A stretch of 23,332 nt of DNA from a virus, in IMG/VR virus record IMGVR_UViG_3300045242_000125, positions 1 through 23,332 of that record. One strand, given 5' to 3'. Positions 1 to 18,639 of the stretch are shown piece after piece (within the stretch, counting starts at the first letter, position 1; each line of letters starts with the position of its first letter). Under the pieces are notes generated by a model, which did not search any database, was not told the origin of the DNA, and saw nothing but the letters and a program-made list of their open reading frames with translations. A program made the translations under genes and the position numbers.

Positions 1-2
1 CC

Positions 3-242
3 GCGAGCTTCTTGCGCCTTGGCACCGAAGCTACTGCGAATGCGCTGCTGCTGTTCAAGATCAAGAACCATGCGCAGGTCGAGGATCAGACGATGACCAT
101 CCGACAAGTCATTTCTGCCGATGCCATCCAGTCGATGATCGACGCCGCCTACGCCGAAGCGCCGCGCGTCGTGAAACTCGGGATGGAAAATTATGAGCGC
201 CGCGTCGTCGCCGGCAATAAGGAAATGGAGACCGCCGCATGA
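3..242 (+). CDS. 3' end of an unrecognised phage protein (partial at window edge)
   Basis: The reading frame is open from the left window edge to a TGA at 240-242, so the gene most likely begins outside the window. An internal ATG at 93 with GAGG about 8 bp upstream could be a start giving a 49-residue protein. The sequence before that ATG also reads like real protein, so I favour a truncated longer gene. The C-terminal part looks helical and charged. I recognise no family. Its stop overlaps the start of the IS110-like gene (ATGA), so the two are probably translationally coupled in one early operon. Confidence 0.45.
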   Translation, partial: ASFLRLGTEATANALLLFKIKNHAQVEDQTMTIRQVISADAIQSMIDAAYAEAPRVVKLGMENYERRVVAGNKEMETAA

Positions 243-1111
243 GATCCCCAGACAGAACGCAGACCGAAATCATCGATGACTTGCGCAGTCTTCACCGCGA
301 GCGACGCTATGCCATGAAGGTGCAGCAGAAGATCGACCGCGCCCTCGAAGCATTCGTGCGCAATAACGCTACGACGTGGTCGTTCGACATGGCGGAAGAC
401 GAACGCGAGAAGATCAATCGCGAGGTCAAGGCGATCATCGCAGCGGCGCGCAAGGACGGCACTGGACTTCCCCGCATCGTCGAGCTCGTCGGCACCACCG
501 ACCGCGCGCGTGGGCCGTTCGACGCGGTGCGCGAGGCGGCCGAGAAAAACATGGAGCAACTCGCCGCCAAGCTGCCGGTCATGGCGTGGATCAACACTGT
601 CAACGGCGCTGCCGCGCTCGGCCTCGCCACCATCATCGCCGAGACGGGCGACCTCGCCAATTATAAGGGGCCGGCAAAGGTGTGGTCGCGGCTCGGCTAC
701 GCACCATTCGATGGCAGCGCGGGCTCGACGTGGAAGCGCCCGACGTGGCGAACGCGCACGCTCTCGGCTGAAGAGTGGACCGAGCACCCCTTCAGCGGGC
801 AGCGCTACGCTTTGATCCACCAGATTTCGATCTGGTTAATCAACGCCCAATGGATCGGCGCCGACAAAAGCGAAAGCGGCGAGGGCGAGCCGGCCGGGTA
901 CTACGGATGGGTTTACAGCGAGCGGCGAAAGCACACAGCAGCGACGCATGCCGATTGGTCGAAGCAGCACAGTCGCATGGATGCGCTGCGCGTGGCCATG
1001 AAGGCGTTCTTGCGAGATTTGTGGTGTCAGTGGAATGACCGCCCCATGCCGGCGCGGCCTGAAACCGAGTTCGCGCCGAAGCCAAAACCGAAACGGAAAA
1101 CAAAGTCATGA
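239..1111 (+). CDS. IS110-like Transposase_20-domain protein without the DEDD domain
   Basis: A 290-residue protein. Residues 1-110 are charged and helical (probable coiled coil). Residues 116-158 match the helix-hairpin-helix start of the Transposase_20 domain of IS110/IS116/IS902 recombinases: a VNGAAALGLATIIAETGDL-type stretch, then AKVWSRLGYAP. The Gly-Ser-Ala-Gly-Ser at 159-163 lies where IS110 enzymes carry their catalytic Ser; S160 and S163 are candidates. Residues 186-260 resemble the remaining helices and end in AFLRDLW. The Lys-rich tail suggests nucleic-acid binding. IS110 enzymes normally carry an N-terminal RuvC-like DEDD nuclease domain, and I see no counterpart, so DNA cleavage in the usual way seems unlikely (inference). 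The gene is coupled to the one upstream, and its last codons lie inside the leader of the RNA-like array that follows, suggesting a protein-RNA pair. Family call fairly sure; function unknown. Confidence 0.72.
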   Translation: MRSPDRTQTEIIDDLRSLHRERRYAMKVQQKIDRALEAFVRNNATTWSFDMAEDEREKINREVKAIIAAARKDGTGLPRIVELVGTTDRARGPFDAVREAAEKNMEQLAAKLPVMAWINTVNGAAALGLATIIAETGDLANYKGPAKVWSRLGYAPFDGSAGSTWKRPTWRTRTLSAEEWTEHPFSGQRYALIHQISIWLINAQWIGADKSESGEGEPAGYYGWVYSERRKHTAATHADWSKQHSRMDALRVAMKAFLRDLWCQWNDRPMPARPETEFAPKPKPKRKTKS

Positions 1112-1115
1112 TCAG

Positions 1116-1218
1116 AACTGCGGTCGCCAGTCGAGCCTTGATGCCCAGGGGCAGCGTGCGACCGCATGCGCGCGGCCAAGCGAGGCGTGATGCCCAGAAG
1201 TCGTTTGCCGCGCGCTCT
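1116..1218 (+). repeat. Guide-like unit A
   Basis: Stem 1 arms lie at 1119-1127 and 1158-1166; stem 2 arms at 1168-1176 and 1207-1215. Loop 1 (1128-1157) carries GTCGAGCCT and GGGGCAGCG around TGATGCCCA. Loop 2 (1177-1206) carries AGCGAGGCG and GAAGTCGTT. The leader CAAAGTCATGATCAG (1101-1115) overlaps the last codons and stop of the upstream gene and recurs before unit C. Confidence 0.75.
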
Positions 1219-1232
1219 CTTTCACCACCTCG

Positions 1233-1335
1233 AACTGCGGTCGCCACTCGATGGCTGATGCCCAGGGAAGCGCTGCGACCGCATGCGCGCGGCCAGAAAG
1301 CCAGTGATGCCCAAAAAGCCGCTGCCGCGCGCTCT
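1233..1335 (+). repeat. Guide-like unit B
   Basis: Stem 1 arms at 1236-1244 and 1275-1283, stem 2 arms at 1285-1293 and 1324-1332. Loop 1 carries CTCGATGGC and GGGAAGCGC; loop 2 carries GAAAGCCAG and AAAAGCCGC, each around TGATGCCCA. The unit follows unit A after only 14 bp and lacks the 15-bp leader shared by A and C. Confidence 0.75.
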
Positions 1336-1359
1336 TCTTTCTCGGCTACGTCCAGGGAC

Positions 1360-1465
1360 GCAAATGGTGCGGGCAGTGCGGGGCTCGCCACGAAAGGTGC
1401 CCTCGGGCCCTGGGCGTTTCCAACTACTGACTCCCGGCAAGGGCACCGGCTCGCACACCATTTGC
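1360..1465 (+). ncRNA. Nested palindrome between units B and C
   Basis: Perfect outer inverted repeat GCAAATGGTG (1360-1369) / CACCATTTGC (1456-1465). It can be extended by CGGGC (1370-1374) against GGCTCGC-side bases (1449-1453) across a 2-nt bulge. Inside lies GGTGCCC (1396-1402) / GGGCACC (1441-1447). The element fills most of the 149-bp gap between units B and C and does not share the unit consensus. It could be a structured RNA (scaffold or processing signal), a small inserted repeat, or a DNA site; I cannot decide which. Confidence 0.45.
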
Positions 1466-1484
1466 AAGGCAAAGTCATGATCAG

Positions 1485-1587
1485 AACTGCGGTCGCCAAT
1501 CGAGCCTTGATGCCCATGAGCACGGTGCGACCGCATGCGCGCGGCCAAGATACTTCTGATGCCCAAAGCGCAAGTGCCGCGCGCTCT
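1485..1587 (+). repeat. Guide-like unit C
   Basis: Stem 1 arms at 1488-1496 and 1527-1535, stem 2 arms at 1537-1545 and 1576-1584. Loop 1 carries ATCGAGCCT and TGAGCACGG; loop 2 carries AGATACTTC and AAGCGCAAG, each around TGATGCCCA. The 29 bp at 1470-1498 are identical to 1101-1129, so unit C together with its leader looks like a duplicate of unit A with changed variable segments. A CT-rich tail follows the last stem, as in A and B. Confidence 0.75.
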
Positions 1588-1642
1588 TCTTCTTCTCAGG
1601 TCTAAAAAACACAAGTGCGTAAGCCAAACTAACGGTTGACAC

Positions 1643-1846
1643 ATGACCGAAAAACTACCTTTCACCCAGCAGTCCATTCGCCGCGCCATAGAGGCGGCTC
1701 GGAAGGCGGGCCTGCACGTGCTCGCCATCCGGGCCGATGGCACGGTGATTGTCGGCGAACACCCGGTCGACGGCAGCAAGCTGGTGCCGACCGCGCCGCA
1801 GACGGGCGACGAAGCCGAACGCGCGTATTGGGAGACTGTTAAATGA
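1643..1846 (+). CDS. Small conserved-type protein preceding the integrase
   Basis: A 67-residue protein with an N-terminal amphipathic helix (IRRAIEAARKAG) followed by a beta-like HVLAIRADGTVIVG segment. Small proteins of this style often sit immediately upstream of integrases in rhizobial prophages (recollection, not checked). Its TGA overlaps the integrase ATG (ATGA), so the two are translationally coupled. No clear Shine-Dalgarno precedes the ATG at 1643. An overlapping ORF in another frame (1636-1842) is rejected as a shadow. It could be an integrase accessory or excisionase-like factor, but no HTH is evident and I assign no function. Confidence 0.7.
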   Translation: MTEKLPFTQQSIRRAIEAARKAGLHVLAIRADGTVIVGEHPVDGSKLVPTAPQTGDEAERAYWETVK

Positions 1847-2913
1847 AGGTGCGGCTGAAATACCTGAGCATCGAGCGCTCCAGGCACGGCAAGGAAGTCG
1901 CCTATGTCATCGCTGGATCAGGCAAGCGCCGCCGCATTCGAATCCGCGAGTCGTTCGGCTCCCCCGGTTTCATGGCCGCCTATGAGACCGCGGTCGTCGA
2001 GCTAGGACAGCCGGTTGCACCGGGCAAGTCCGCTGAGCCAAAGAAGGGTACGCTGCGCTGGCTCGCCGGGCAGTATTTTGCCTCGCCGGTCTTCCGTAAT
2101 CTCGATCTGAAGTCACAAGGGGTGCGAATGTCCGTGATCGAGAGTTGCCTGCGCGAAGCGACGCCTCGCCCGATGGCCGAGTGTCCGTTGACAATGTTCG
2201 GCCCGAACCAAGTTCGCCTGCTGCGCGACCGCCGGTCAGCCCAGCCGGGCGCCGCCAACAACAGAATGAAATACTTATCCGCGATGTTTGGCTGGGCGCT
2301 CGAGAACCTGCCCGACGCGGTGACGAGCAACCCGGTGCGCGACGTTCAAAAGCTGAAATACGAGAAGACCGGCTTCCGCCCCTGGACCGAGAGCGATCTG
2401 GCGAAGTTCGAGGACGCCTATCCGGTCGGCACCAAGCAGCGGCTGGCCTTGGCGCTGCTGCTGTTCACCGGCGCGCGGCGATCCGACGTTGTCGACCTGG
2501 GCCCCGCCTGCGTGCGCGACGGCATGATCCGTTTCGTGCCTAAGAAGACCAAGCGCATCCGCGGAGAGGCAACGCCGAAGCCCTACCTGCCCGAACTGGC
2601 GCGGATCGTGGCGGCCACCAAGCTGCAGGGCCGTGAGACCTTCCTGGTGACCGACTACGGCAAGCCGTTCAGCGTCGCCGGGTTCGGTGGCTGGTTCGCC
2701 GAGCAGTGCCGCCGGGTCGGACTCGACGACTGCACCGCCCACGGCTTGCGCAAGCTCGGCGCCATGCGGGCGGCAATGGCAGGCGCCTCGCACTACCAAC
2801 TGATGGCGGTCTACGACTGGTCCACCCCGGCGCAGGCGCAGGCGTATATCAACCTTGCCGAGCGCGCCCGCGGCGCCGCTGCGGCGATGGGGTTCCTGGC
2901 AAAACGGGGGTGA
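1843..2913 (+). CDS. int: Tyrosine recombinase (phage integrase)
   Basis: 356 residues, the usual length for a phage integrase. The N-terminal half (about 1-175) fits arm- and core-binding domains. The catalytic domain shows box I TGARRSD (R212), a beta-hairpin Lys region PKKTKR (about 234-237), HGLR (H300, R303), a Trp in place of the second His (W326 in YDWST), and the nucleophile Tyr335 in AQAYI. It would catalyse site-specific integration and, with an accessory factor, excision. It starts at an ATG overlapping the stop of the 67-residue gene. No attachment core is identifiable with confidence; repeated GTTCGCAC motifs start 13 bp after the stop codon. The gene is intact. Confidence 0.95.
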   Translation: MKVRLKYLSIERSRHGKEVAYVIAGSGKRRRIRIRESFGSPGFMAAYETAVVELGQPVAPGKSAEPKKGTLRWLAGQYFASPVFRNLDLKSQGVRMSVIESCLREATPRPMAECPLTMFGPNQVRLLRDRRSAQPGAANNRMKYLSAMFGWALENLPDAVTSNPVRDVQKLKYEKTGFRPWTESDLAKFEDAYPVGTKQRLALALLLFTGARRSDVVDLGPACVRDGMIRFVPKKTKRIRGEATPKPYLPELARIVAATKLQGRETFLVTDYGKPFSVAGFGGWFAEQCRRVGLDDCTAHGLRKLGAMRAAMAGASHYQLMAVYDWSTPAQAQAYINLAERARGAAAAMGFLAKRG

Positions 2914-3338: not shown

Positions 3339-3627
3339 GACGCGGCACGCGTTTCAAGCGCGCGCACGCAACGGACGCGCCTTGACGGGTGCGCCCTCCT
3401 GGCCAGTGTTGGCCGGGGGCGGGCGCCATGTCCAGGCCTCACGGCTAAAAGCGTCCGGCGGACCCGGTTATTTGTCCGCTCTGACCCCCCGGCTTTTCGG
3501 CACGGGGCTCATCGTGACGCACGACGCCATCCGCGACGCTAATCTCGACATCGGCAAAGGCCCGACTGGCTGGTTGGCCCGGTCGTGGTGCTTGCCGGCG
3601 ACGCCGAGTTCATGTGCGCGATTTAAC

Positions 3628-3633
3628 AGGAGG
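3628..3633 (+). promoter_or_regulatory. Ribosome binding site deciding the repressor start
   Basis: AGGAGG ends 10 bp before the ATG at 3644 and extends as AGGAGGGAGG. It favours this ATG over the in-frame GTG at 3614. Confidence 0.75.
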
Positions 3634-3643
3634 GAGGCTTGCC

Positions 3644-4051
3644 ATGCCAAACACGAAGACTCCTGACCTGATCGACCGGCACGTCGGCGGCAAGGTGCGG
3701 ATGCGCCGCCTGATGCTCGACATATCGCAGGCGAAGGTTGCCGACGCTTTGGGGATCACGCTCCAGCAGTTGCAAAAATACGAGAAGGGCAAAAATCGCA
3801 TCGGGGCGTCGCGCATGCAGCAGATCGCCCGCGTCCTGCAGGTGCCGGTTGCGTTTTTCTTCGAGGGAGCGCCGGGTGGTAACGGCGGCGCTGCCGCCGC
3901 CGCCGGTGCGGACGAGGTCCGCGATCTTCATGCATTTCTGGCGACGCCCCTTGGGGTCGCGTTAACCAAAACGCTGATGCGAATGGGCGACCGGCCGGTG
4001 CGCGCCCTCCTGGCTTTCGTGGAAGCGCTCGCTGACGAGGTGGAGCCATGA
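3644..4051 (+). CDS. XRE-family helix-turn-helix repressor
   Basis: 135 residues. Residues about 13-72 form an XRE/Cro-CI HTH domain: GKVRMRRLMLDISQAKVADA, then LQQLQKYEKGKNRIGASRM, then IARVLQVPVAFFFEG. This is the typical alphaproteobacterial small XRE type, with YEKG and VPVxFFFEG signatures. The rest is an Ala/Gly-rich linker and a helical C-terminal segment, probably for oligomerisation. The start was chosen by the strong Shine-Dalgarno. Its position between int and the late genes fits a lysogeny regulator. An operator-like cluster of CAGTATTC half-sites lies 69 bp downstream of its stop and is a natural candidate target (inference). A host-type regulator with another role remains possible. 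Confidence 0.88.
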   Translation: MPNTKTPDLIDRHVGGKVRMRRLMLDISQAKVADALGITLQQLQKYEKGKNRIGASRMQQIARVLQVPVAFFFEGAPGGNGGAAAAAGADEVRDLHAFLATPLGVALTKTLMRMGDRPVRALLAFVEALADEVEP

Positions 4052-17249: not shown

Positions 17250-18639
17250 GGGTCGGCTCAAAGTAGTCGTTCCACTCGGCGACGGTGATGTCGCTCTCGT
17301 CGAGGTCGTTGGCGTTTGCGGCCGCCGGTGCCGGCGCCGGGCCGGCGGGCGCGCCGGCCGGCGGCGATGGCGGCCTCGGCTCGGTGGCGAAGCTCAAGGG
17401 CACGACCTGCTGCTGCACGCGTGGCTCGTCGCCCGCCTTTGCCGCCGGCAACCCGAATTCGGCGCGCGCCTCGTTGGGGGCATAGATGCCGCCGATGACG
17501 CCGCCCGAATATGCCTCGATGCGGTCCTTGAGGTTCGAGCGCAGCAGCACCTCGGAGTCGAGTTCGCAGCATTCGTTCGGCCCCAACGCAAACAGCTTGT
17601 CAAACGCCTGCTCGACCCGGTCGAGCGCGAAGCCGAGCCCGCCGCTGATCCAGAAATTCATCAGCGCTTCGGTCGAGCCCATCGGCTGCGATTCTGAGCC
17701 GACGATGGCGAGCGGCACGCGAAAGACCTGCGCGATCTGCGCGTCGCTGAGTTTCAAGGCTTCGGCGATTTGGCCGTCCTTTGCCGAGACGGCCACCGGA
17801 GCGAATTTGAGCCCGTGCGTCAGGATCGGCGTGCCGCCCGCGTTCAATCCTTTGGATTGTTCGTCCCAGCGCGCGCGCAAATCCTCGGTTTGCGCCTTGG
17901 TAAGTGCCAAGTCGGTCTGCAGCACGCCGCCGGGGCGGCTTTGATTTTGAAAGAACGCGATTGACTGCGCCATGATCGCATTGGTCGCGGCGACCGCCAT
18001 GGCAGCGGCGCCCAGCGGCGACTCGCCGTGCAACACGTCGCGGATCGAATTGAGTTTGATGTGCAGCACGTCGCGCGCCGGCACAAAATTGAGCAGCGAG
18101 GCATCCAGCTCCTGAGCGGTGATGCGGCTGTTAACCACGTAATTGCCGCCGAGTTGGTAGATGATCTCGCCGTCGAGCGGCTGGCCGCGGCTCATGCGCG
18201 GATTCATCTGGTGCAATTCGGCGATCTCAAAACGGTTGTTCCTGACGGCCAACGCATAAGCGTTGCCGTCGAGGTAGAGCGAGCGGACCATGTTGAGCAG
18301 AAATTCCGACCGCGTCTGGTAGTCGTTCGGCGCCAGCGCGATACGCGAAAGCGCCGAGGTCGTGACCTGCTCGCGGCCGCCATTGTCGAGCAGGGCATAG
18401 TGATACATCGGGCATTGGGCCACGGTCTGCGCGTAGGCCGAGACGCAGGCCTCGACCATCGCCGACATCCCGCCTGGAACCGGGTCCAGGTCCATCTGCC
18501 AGTGATTCCAGTAGCCCCAGGCATGCGGCAGCATGCCGGTCATGTTGCCGTAAGTAATTTGATACGGGCCGTCGTGGTAGGCGCCTTCCGGCGCCGCCTT
18601 GGCCGACAACAGCGATCCGATCTTGCTCAACCAGCTCAT
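17212..18639 (-). CDS. HK97-family portal protein
   Basis: 475 residues, starting MSWLSKIGSLLS, with a good family match: ACVSAYAQTVAQCPMYHY (about 65-82), LLNMVRSLYLDGNAYALAVR (114-133), HQMNPRMS, DVLHIKLNS, SPLGAAAMAVAATNAI, and SDAQIAQVFRVPLAIVG near 300-317. It forms the dodecameric DNA gate at the capsid vertex and docks the terminase. The C-terminus is an Ala/Pro-rich linker (about 420-450) followed by an acidic tail. The start overlaps the stop of the Gln-Pro repeat gene (ATGA). Confidence 0.95.
   Translation of the reverse strand: MSWLSKIGSLLSAKAAPEGAYHDGPYQITYGNMTGMLPHAWGYWNHWQMDLDPVPGGMSAMVEACVSAYAQTVAQCPMYHYALLDNGGREQVTTSALSRIALAPNDYQTRSEFLLNMVRSLYLDGNAYALAVRNNRFEIAELHQMNPRMSRGQPLDGEIIYQLGGNYVVNSRITAQELDASLLNFVPARDVLHIKLNSIRDVLHGESPLGAAAMAVAATNAIMAQSIAFFQNQSRPGGVLQTDLALTKAQTEDLRARWDEQSKGLNAGGTPILTHGLKFAPVAVSAKDGQIAEALKLSDAQIAQVFRVPLAIVGSESQPMGSTEALMNFWISGGLGFALDRVEQAFDKLFALGPNECCELDSEVLLRSNLKDRIEAYSGGVIGGIYAPNEARAEFGLPAAKAGDEPRVQQQVVPLSFATEPRPPSPPAGAPAGPAPAPAAANANDLDESDITVAEWNDYFEPTHEVERLGARAAG

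What the first reader, a model, noticed from the sequence alone, without database searches (positions are those of the whole stretch)
239..1111. IS110-type recombinase domain without its RuvC-like nuclease half
The C-terminal Transposase_20 features, including Ser candidates S160/S163, are recognisable. The first 110 residues are helical with no DEDD motif, although in IS110 enzymes the DEDD and Ser domains build a composite active site. If the protein binds the adjacent RNA units, it could be an RNA-guided DNA-binding protein without cleavage, analogous to nuclease-dead TnpB-derived repressors (TldR). Alternatively it may work with another nuclease. Piv/MooV invertases show that the family has non-transposition roles.
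Basis: partly seen in the sequence, partly recalled or inferred. Interest (0 to 1): 0.85.

Follow-up and report, generated by a model that had tools for sequence, protein, structure and literature searches.

The report
Nuclease-free TIGR-Tas guide system in phage
This phage gene is not a broken jumping-gene enzyme but the nuclease-free protein of a recently discovered guide-RNA system (TIGR-Tas), sitting next to six intact dual-guide RNA hairpins and an uncharacterised partner gene, so it probably lets the phage bind chosen DNA sites without cutting them.

Summary
In detail: ORF 239-1111 has an IS110-like C-terminal half and no nuclease domain. Its identity is different. It is TasA, the nuclease-free effector of TIGR-Tas systems (Faure et al., Science 2025). 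NCBIfam TIGR_Tas is the best family match (54.6 bits, below its curated cut-off of 100). The predicted fold matches TasH (Z 15.4) and TasR (14.1) better than IS110 (12.0), starting after their nuclease domains. The "adjacent RNA units" are six perfect tigRNA stem-loops at 1119-1584: 8-bp stem, box C CCA, 9-nt spacer A, TGATGCCCA, 9-nt spacer B, box D TG. Relatives carry such units close to tasA: 147 on its strand, 2 on the other. Stems covary; spacers differ. S160/S163 are not conserved catalytic residues. Beyond the published text that I could read: (1) an uncharacterised gene ("tasX") adjoins tasA in 52 of 60 phage loci and in a cultured Rhizobium phage; (2) in the window and several close relatives hairpins come as adjacent pairs with two different stems; (3) many arrays lie in open sense reading frames, some coupled to the preceding gene. 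Most likely role: tigRNA-guided, non-cleaving DNA binding that silences or competes with other mobile elements. Natural targets were sought and not found.

The parts
1..242 (+). 3' end of tasX (uncharacterised partner gene; C-terminal 79 residues, the rest lies off the record); its stop overlaps the tasA start (ATGA)
   Evidence: Aligned with full-length tasX of L002, L003, L004 and L006; found by profile next to tasA in 52 of 60 loci
239..1111 (+). tasA: coiled coil (about 8-109) plus Nop-type RNA-binding domain (about 112-274), no nuclease domain
   Evidence: NCBIfam TIGR_Tas_endo 54.6 bits; fold match to TasH, TasR, IS110 and Nop5; profile match to 9mty TasR
1108..1605 (+). open reading frame of 165 codons that spans the whole array; its ATG overlaps the tasA stop (ATGA)
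   Evidence: possible translated precursor, not shown
1119..1166 (+). tigRNA unit u1h1: stem TGCGGTCG/CGACCGCA, spacer A GTCGAGCCT, loop TGATGCCCA, spacer B GGGGCAGCG
1168..1215 (+). tigRNA unit u1h2: stem GCGCGCGG/CCGCGCGC, spacer A AGCGAGGCG, spacer B GAAGTCGTT
1236..1283 (+). tigRNA unit u2h1: stem TGCGGTCG/CGACCGCA, spacer A CTCGATGGC, spacer B GGGAAGCGC
1285..1332 (+). tigRNA unit u2h2: stem GCGCGCGG/CCGCGCGC, spacer A GAAAGCCAG, spacer B AAAAGCCGC
1488..1535 (+). tigRNA unit u3h1: stem TGCGGTCG/CGACCGCA, spacer A ATCGAGCCT, spacer B TGAGCACGG
1537..1584 (+). tigRNA unit u3h2: stem GCGCGCGG/CCGCGCGC, spacer A AGATACTTC, spacer B AAGCGCAAG

Best explanation
[quoted passage not shown] tasX, tasA and the array are probably transcribed together (inferred: tasX and tasA overlap by ATGA and the first hairpin starts 8 nt after the tasA stop). 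The six hairpins are released as tigRNAs. A TasA dimer binds box C (CCA) and box D (UG) of one hairpin; spacer A pairs with one DNA strand and spacer B with the other, opening and bending an 18-bp target (shown for TasR in PMC12045711, inferred here). With no nuclease domain the complex stays bound without cutting. It most likely blocks transcription or replication of competing mobile elements, or regulates chosen sites, and spacers are replaced over time. Shown here: protein family and fold, absence of a nuclease domain, intact guide hairpins of a kind conserved in relatives, conserved partner gene. Inferred: RNA processing, DNA binding, biological role.
For: TIGR_Tas is the best family match and covers almost the whole model (relatives 71.6 and 69.3 bits). 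Fold Z: TasH 15.4, TasR 14.1, IS110 about 12, Nop5 7.5. Six units with exactly the published box C/box D and dual 9-nt spacer anatomy, absent from 2000 shuffles. In relatives 147 units lie on the tasA strand, all within 3 kb of tasA, against 2 on the other strand; the stems covary. A partner gene adjoins tasA in 52 of 60 loci and in a cultured phage.
Against: The NCBIfam score is below the curated cut-off. No natural target was found, so DNA binding and role are by homology. No RNA or protein data exist for this locus. Some relatives show no unit with these boxes.
Confidence: 0.8

Rival explanations
1. RNA-guided aid to phage recombination or integration: TasA bends chosen DNA sites for the integrase or the recombination proteins rather than silencing competitors.
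For: An integrase lies close by in the window (1843-2913) and in L002 (12049-13116), where genes that look like YqaJ exonuclease and RecT precede tasX (named by eye). The founding paper proposes the idea because TasR bends DNA by nearly 180 degrees.
Against: Several loci carry many different guides (L003 22, L007 about 24), more than one integration site would need; in L003 the module lies next to genes that look structural. No guide matches the window itself with 2 or fewer mismatches.
Confidence: 0.12
2. TasA acts with a nuclease or another effector in trans, possibly recruited by TasX, so that the target is cut or modified after all.
For: tasX is nearly always next to tasA and has no known function.
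Against: tasX shows no nuclease family or fold match; its model is helical with pLDDT 68.5, so this is weak evidence.
Confidence: 0.15
3. A degenerate IS110 element: the remnant of a transposase that lost its DEDD domain and has no function.
For: Weak Transposase_20 and IS110 matches.
Against: Conserved at 24-63% identity in phages that share little else, with intact guide arrays; closer to TasH and TasR than to IS110 by profile and fold.
Confidence: 0.03

Closest known systems
TIGR-TasA with stem-loop array (Peromyscus leucopus gut contig; Faure et al. 2025, PMC12045711)
   Same: Solo-Nop TasA without nuclease; [quoted passage not shown] variable palindromic stems
   Different: Here a constant TGATGCCCA loop (4 nt between boxes), two alternating stems in adjacent pairs, the array in an open frame, and tasX upstream; sequence identity to that locus not measured
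TasR (9mty) and TasH (9vzx, 9w02-9w04, 21kl)
   Same: Coiled coil plus Nop domain (Z 14.1 and 15.4); dual-spacer guide RNA
   Different: They carry N-terminal RuvC or HNH nucleases and use dual-repeat arrays; the window protein has neither nuclease
IS110 recombinases (IS621, ISCro4)
   Same: Same C-terminal fold and coiled coil (Z about 12)
   Different: No DEDD domain here; the catalytic serine region is not conserved; an array of many guides instead of one bridge RNA
TldR (nuclease-dead TnpB derivatives)
   Same: Proposed RNA-guided DNA binding without cleavage in phages (general knowledge)
   Different: Unrelated protein and guide type; no target known here

Membership tests
TIGR-Tas (TasA, stem-loop array type) | Nop domain with coiled coil, related to TasR and TasH | tested here: met
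   Fold Z 15.4 and 14.1, well above unrelated rows at about 7; profile match to 9mty at E 2.7e-5
TIGR-Tas (TasA, stem-loop array type) | Adjacent array of units with two 8-12 nt spacers flanked by box C (CCA) and box D (UG), closed by palindromic stems | tested here: met
   Six units of one form at 1119-1584, none in 2000 shuffles
TIGR-Tas (TasA, stem-loop array type) | No nuclease domain (TasA) | tested here: met
   Alignment to TasH starts at about 65 and to TasR at 111, after the nuclease domains; no nuclease family match
TIGR-Tas (TasA, stem-loop array type) | Array processed into tigRNAs that guide DNA binding | not testable with these tools
   Needs small-RNA sequencing and binding assays
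NCBIfam NF052498 TIGR_Tas_endo (equivalog naming rule) | Score at or above the curated cut-off of 100 bits | tested here: not met
   54.6 bits, E 1.4e-14. This is a naming threshold for the endonuclease equivalog, not a defining feature of TIGR-Tas
IS110 family | N-terminal DEDD (RuvC-like) domain | tested here: not met
   Model match starts at position 115 of 343; structural alignment starts at 124-125 of IS621
IS110 family | Conserved catalytic serine in the C-terminal domain | tested here: not met
   S160 variable; S163 conserved only among the closest relatives
IS110 family | Bridge RNA with target and donor loops, and element ends | tested here: inconclusive
   Six short hairpins of TIGR type instead; adjacent pairs recall a two-loop RNA, but bridge-RNA structure and element ends were not searched for specifically; Rfam gave nothing
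TldR | TnpB ancestry | tested here: not met
   Only IS110 and TIGR-Tas type families matched, besides chance-level rows

The most novel reading that the evidence does not exclude
Stem-loop TIGR-TasA systems are two-gene modules (tasX-tasA) whose guide arrays are kept as translated reading frames coupled to the neighbouring genes, so that one mRNA makes the partner, the effector and the guides, and translation protects the guide precursor from early termination. It would be a guide-RNA array under reading-frame constraint, and TasX would be the missing piece for explaining what nuclease-free TasA does.
Probability: 0.3. Interest if true: 0.85.

Novelty: new variant of a known kind. Interest (0 to 1): 0.62.

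Why it matters
TasA is the commonest TIGR effector, and its function is an open question in the founding paper, which reports only a ParB-like associated protein for some TasA genes. A partner gene found beside tasA in 52 of 60 loci and in a cultured Rhizobium phage, complete guide sets, and a simple search pattern (stem-CCA-N9-TGNNNNCCA-N9-TG-stem) make that question testable. The reading-frame signal in the arrays, if confirmed, would be a new way for a phage to protect and co-regulate a long guide-RNA precursor.

Tried and rejected
Targets: all 133 distinct guides against about 0.9 Mb of fetched phage DNA gave no excess over wrong-order, wrong-strand and shuffled controls. Exact scans of 2.9 million viral contigs for three window guides gave 9, 2 and 10 hits; the 10 fall into 5 independent places, and a wrong-order control gave 5, so they look like chance. 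The 11 contigs of the first two scans share almost nothing with the window phage (one weak endolysin match); those of the third were not compared with it. No self target with 2 or fewer mismatches; the best has 3, inside tasA, near chance.

Host: no tasA relative confirmed in 84,980 genomes by the pattern-based scans, which can miss distant relatives; relatives cannot be drawn for a virus record.

Rfam and PADLOC: nothing. Fold of the array RNA as one piece: no more stable than shuffles (z -0.18), so the long RNA gives no extra support. TasX fold searches: only unrelated helical rows with Z 7 or less. A tasX scan of viral contigs returned only the two query loci, so whether tasX occurs without tasA is not settled.

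Considered and dropped: catalysis by S160/S163; a dual-repeat TIGR array (the edges are palindromic stems, not repeats); the 165-codon array frame as an ordinary protein gene (no family match).

Full report
What the window is. A 23.3-kb virus record: a temperate tailed phage with a terminase 43% identical to that of HK97-like phages, a tyrosine integrase at 1843-2913 whose relatives are mostly in alphaproteobacterial phages and plasmids (mycobacterial and cyanobacterial phages also appear), and an HTH regulator at 3614-4051. The finding concerns the first 1.6 kb.

The protein. ORF 239-1111 matches Pfam Transposase_20 weakly and below its cut-off. In NCBIfam its best match is TIGR_Tas_endo (54.6 bits, E 1.4e-14, residues 49-265, nearly the whole 215-position model), ahead of IS110 (35.1 bits, model positions 115-277 of 343). 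Both are below their curated cut-offs. Relatives in L002 and L003 score 71.6 and 69.3 bits for TIGR_Tas. A five-sequence profile finds TaTasR (9mty, E 2.7e-5) among solved structures and TasH more weakly (E 0.004). The AlphaFold2 model (pLDDT 81.5, pTM 0.77) aligns with TasH at Z 15.4 (203 residues, 3.2 A), TasR 14.1, IS110 enzymes about 12, Nop5 7.5 and Prp31 7.2. The last two lie within the range of unrelated helical rows and are not relied on alone. The match begins at about residue 65 of TasH, 111 of TasR and 124-125 of IS621, that is after each nuclease domain. Residues 8-109 are the coiled coil, not a divergent DEDD domain. S160 is H or L in close relatives; S163 is invariant in the nearest relatives only.

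The RNA units. Downstream of tasA lie six hairpins of one anatomy: 8-bp perfect stem, CCA, 9-nt spacer A, TGATGCCCA, 9-nt spacer B, TG, stem. This is the published stem-loop TIGR unit, with box C = CCA and box D = UG. Two stems alternate (TGCGGTCG and GCGCGCGG), giving three adjacent pairs in which the two hairpins are 1 nt apart. No unit appears in 2000 shuffles. The segment at 1470 is an 84% copy of that at 1101, with one spacer nearly kept and the rest changed, so the array probably grew by duplication followed by spacer change (inference).

Relatives. A profile scan of viral contigs gave 59 relatives, 24-63% identical. They share little else with the window phage, so the module moves between phages. 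Units with 9-nt spacers and 4-nt loops number 147 on the tasA strand, every one within 3 kb of tasA, and 2 on the other strand (these two are in L006 and are themselves a well-formed adjacent pair). Without asking for a stem, the core CCA-N9-TG-N4-CCA-N9-TG occurs 198 times near tasA, 4 times elsewhere and 5 times on the other strand; 147 of the 198 have flanks pairing over 6 bp or more, several Watson-Crick pair types occur at every stem position, and 82 of 133 left arms are distinct. The loci are related, so these are not independent events, but the diversity of perfectly paired stems is not explained by descent of one palindrome. Some relatives show no unit with these boxes, for example L008.

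The partner gene. The window begins inside a gene whose stop overlaps the tasA start (ATGA). A homologous gene stands before tasA in L002, L003, L004/L005 and L006. An iterated profile search over 8681 open frames of all loci ended with one hit per locus in 52 of 60 loci (a few of them copies of one phage), 51 just upstream of tasA and one (L050) just downstream. Iteration can drift, but drift would not land next to tasA each time. Most of the eight loci without a hit start at or near tasA, so the gene may be off the contig; L024 and L051 do not. Outside the training set, the profile finds the gene upstream of the TasA of the cultured Rhizobium phage RHph_X2_25 (QWY83252.1 before QWY83253.1, E 3.8e-20) and, marginally, of Gordonia phage Morrissey (E 8e-4). 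I call it tasX here. It has no convincing family or fold match; its model is helical and of modest confidence. The founding paper reports a ParB-like partner for some TasA genes; its supplementary tables were not readable, so prior notice of tasX there is not excluded.

Reading frames in arrays. In the window the whole array lies in an open frame whose ATG overlaps the tasA stop. Over 21 blocks of three or more units, distances between neighbouring units are multiples of three in 47 of 77 distinct cases (one third expected, binomial p 6e-7; 22 of 37 in the distant loci alone, p 0.001; 6 of 13 between separate blocks, no clear excess). The best sense frames hold 15 stops in all against 46 expected after shuffling spacers and linkers (p 0.0005); the opposite strand holds 23 against 36 (p 0.003). 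In the window, L002, L006, L007, L055 and L039 the frame that holds the array starts with an ATGA overlap with the preceding frame. Cautions: distances within a locus share ancestry, the frame was chosen as the best of three (allowed for in the shuffles), the opposite strand also shows a deficit, and not all arrays obey (the downstream block of L003 does not; in the window only the pair-to-pair distances, 117 and 252, are multiples of three). I take this as suggestive. CRISPR arrays can suffer from polarity that a boxA element relieves (PMC7862264); translation would be another answer to the same problem.

Targets. By the published rule a target should read spacer A followed by the reverse complement of spacer B with a gap of 0-2 bp (this order is my derivation from the cleavage geometry in PMC12045711). 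No excess of matches was seen in the fetched loci or in whole-collection scans for three guides against a wrong-order control. The role therefore remains inferred.

Verdict. In its core a member of a known kind (TIGR-TasA with a stem-loop array) and not an IS110 remnant, with features not in the published text that I could read: a conserved second gene, and arrays that often keep an open frame.

Noticed in passing
L006 10846-11447; L003 1734-2133; L040 5750-6623: Guide units lie inside the tasA open frame itself, as an in-frame C-terminal (L006) or N-terminal (L003, L040) extension without stops.
   Followed up: partly
L006, opposite strand, about 18278-18382: A second, well-formed pair of tigRNA hairpins on the strand opposite to tasA, about 7 kb downstream of it.
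   Followed up: no
L089 (MW960032.1 21262-29206): Cultured Rhizobium phage RHph_X2_25 has tasX and tasA annotated as hypothetical proteins, with tandem hairpins between and after them that appear to use slightly different boxes (read by eye).
   Followed up: partly
L090, L091, L092, L093: TasA-like hypothetical proteins in cultured Gordonia, Mycobacterium, Microcystis and Arthrobacter phages, beside other small hypothetical genes; no units with CCA/TG boxes found.
   Followed up: partly
window 711-729: Guide u1h1 matches the opposite strand of tasA itself with 3 mismatches and a 1-bp gap; near chance, but it lies in a conserved codon stretch.
   Followed up: no
L008 9950-11600: A close TasA relative (53%) with tasX upstream but no recognisable CCA/TG unit nearby; its array may use other boxes or be missing.
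   Followed up: partly
window 1341-1470: Between the second and third hairpin pairs lies a stretch with a long imperfect inverted repeat (GACGCAAATGGTGCG ... TCGCACACCATTTGC), unlike the tigRNA units.
   Followed up: no
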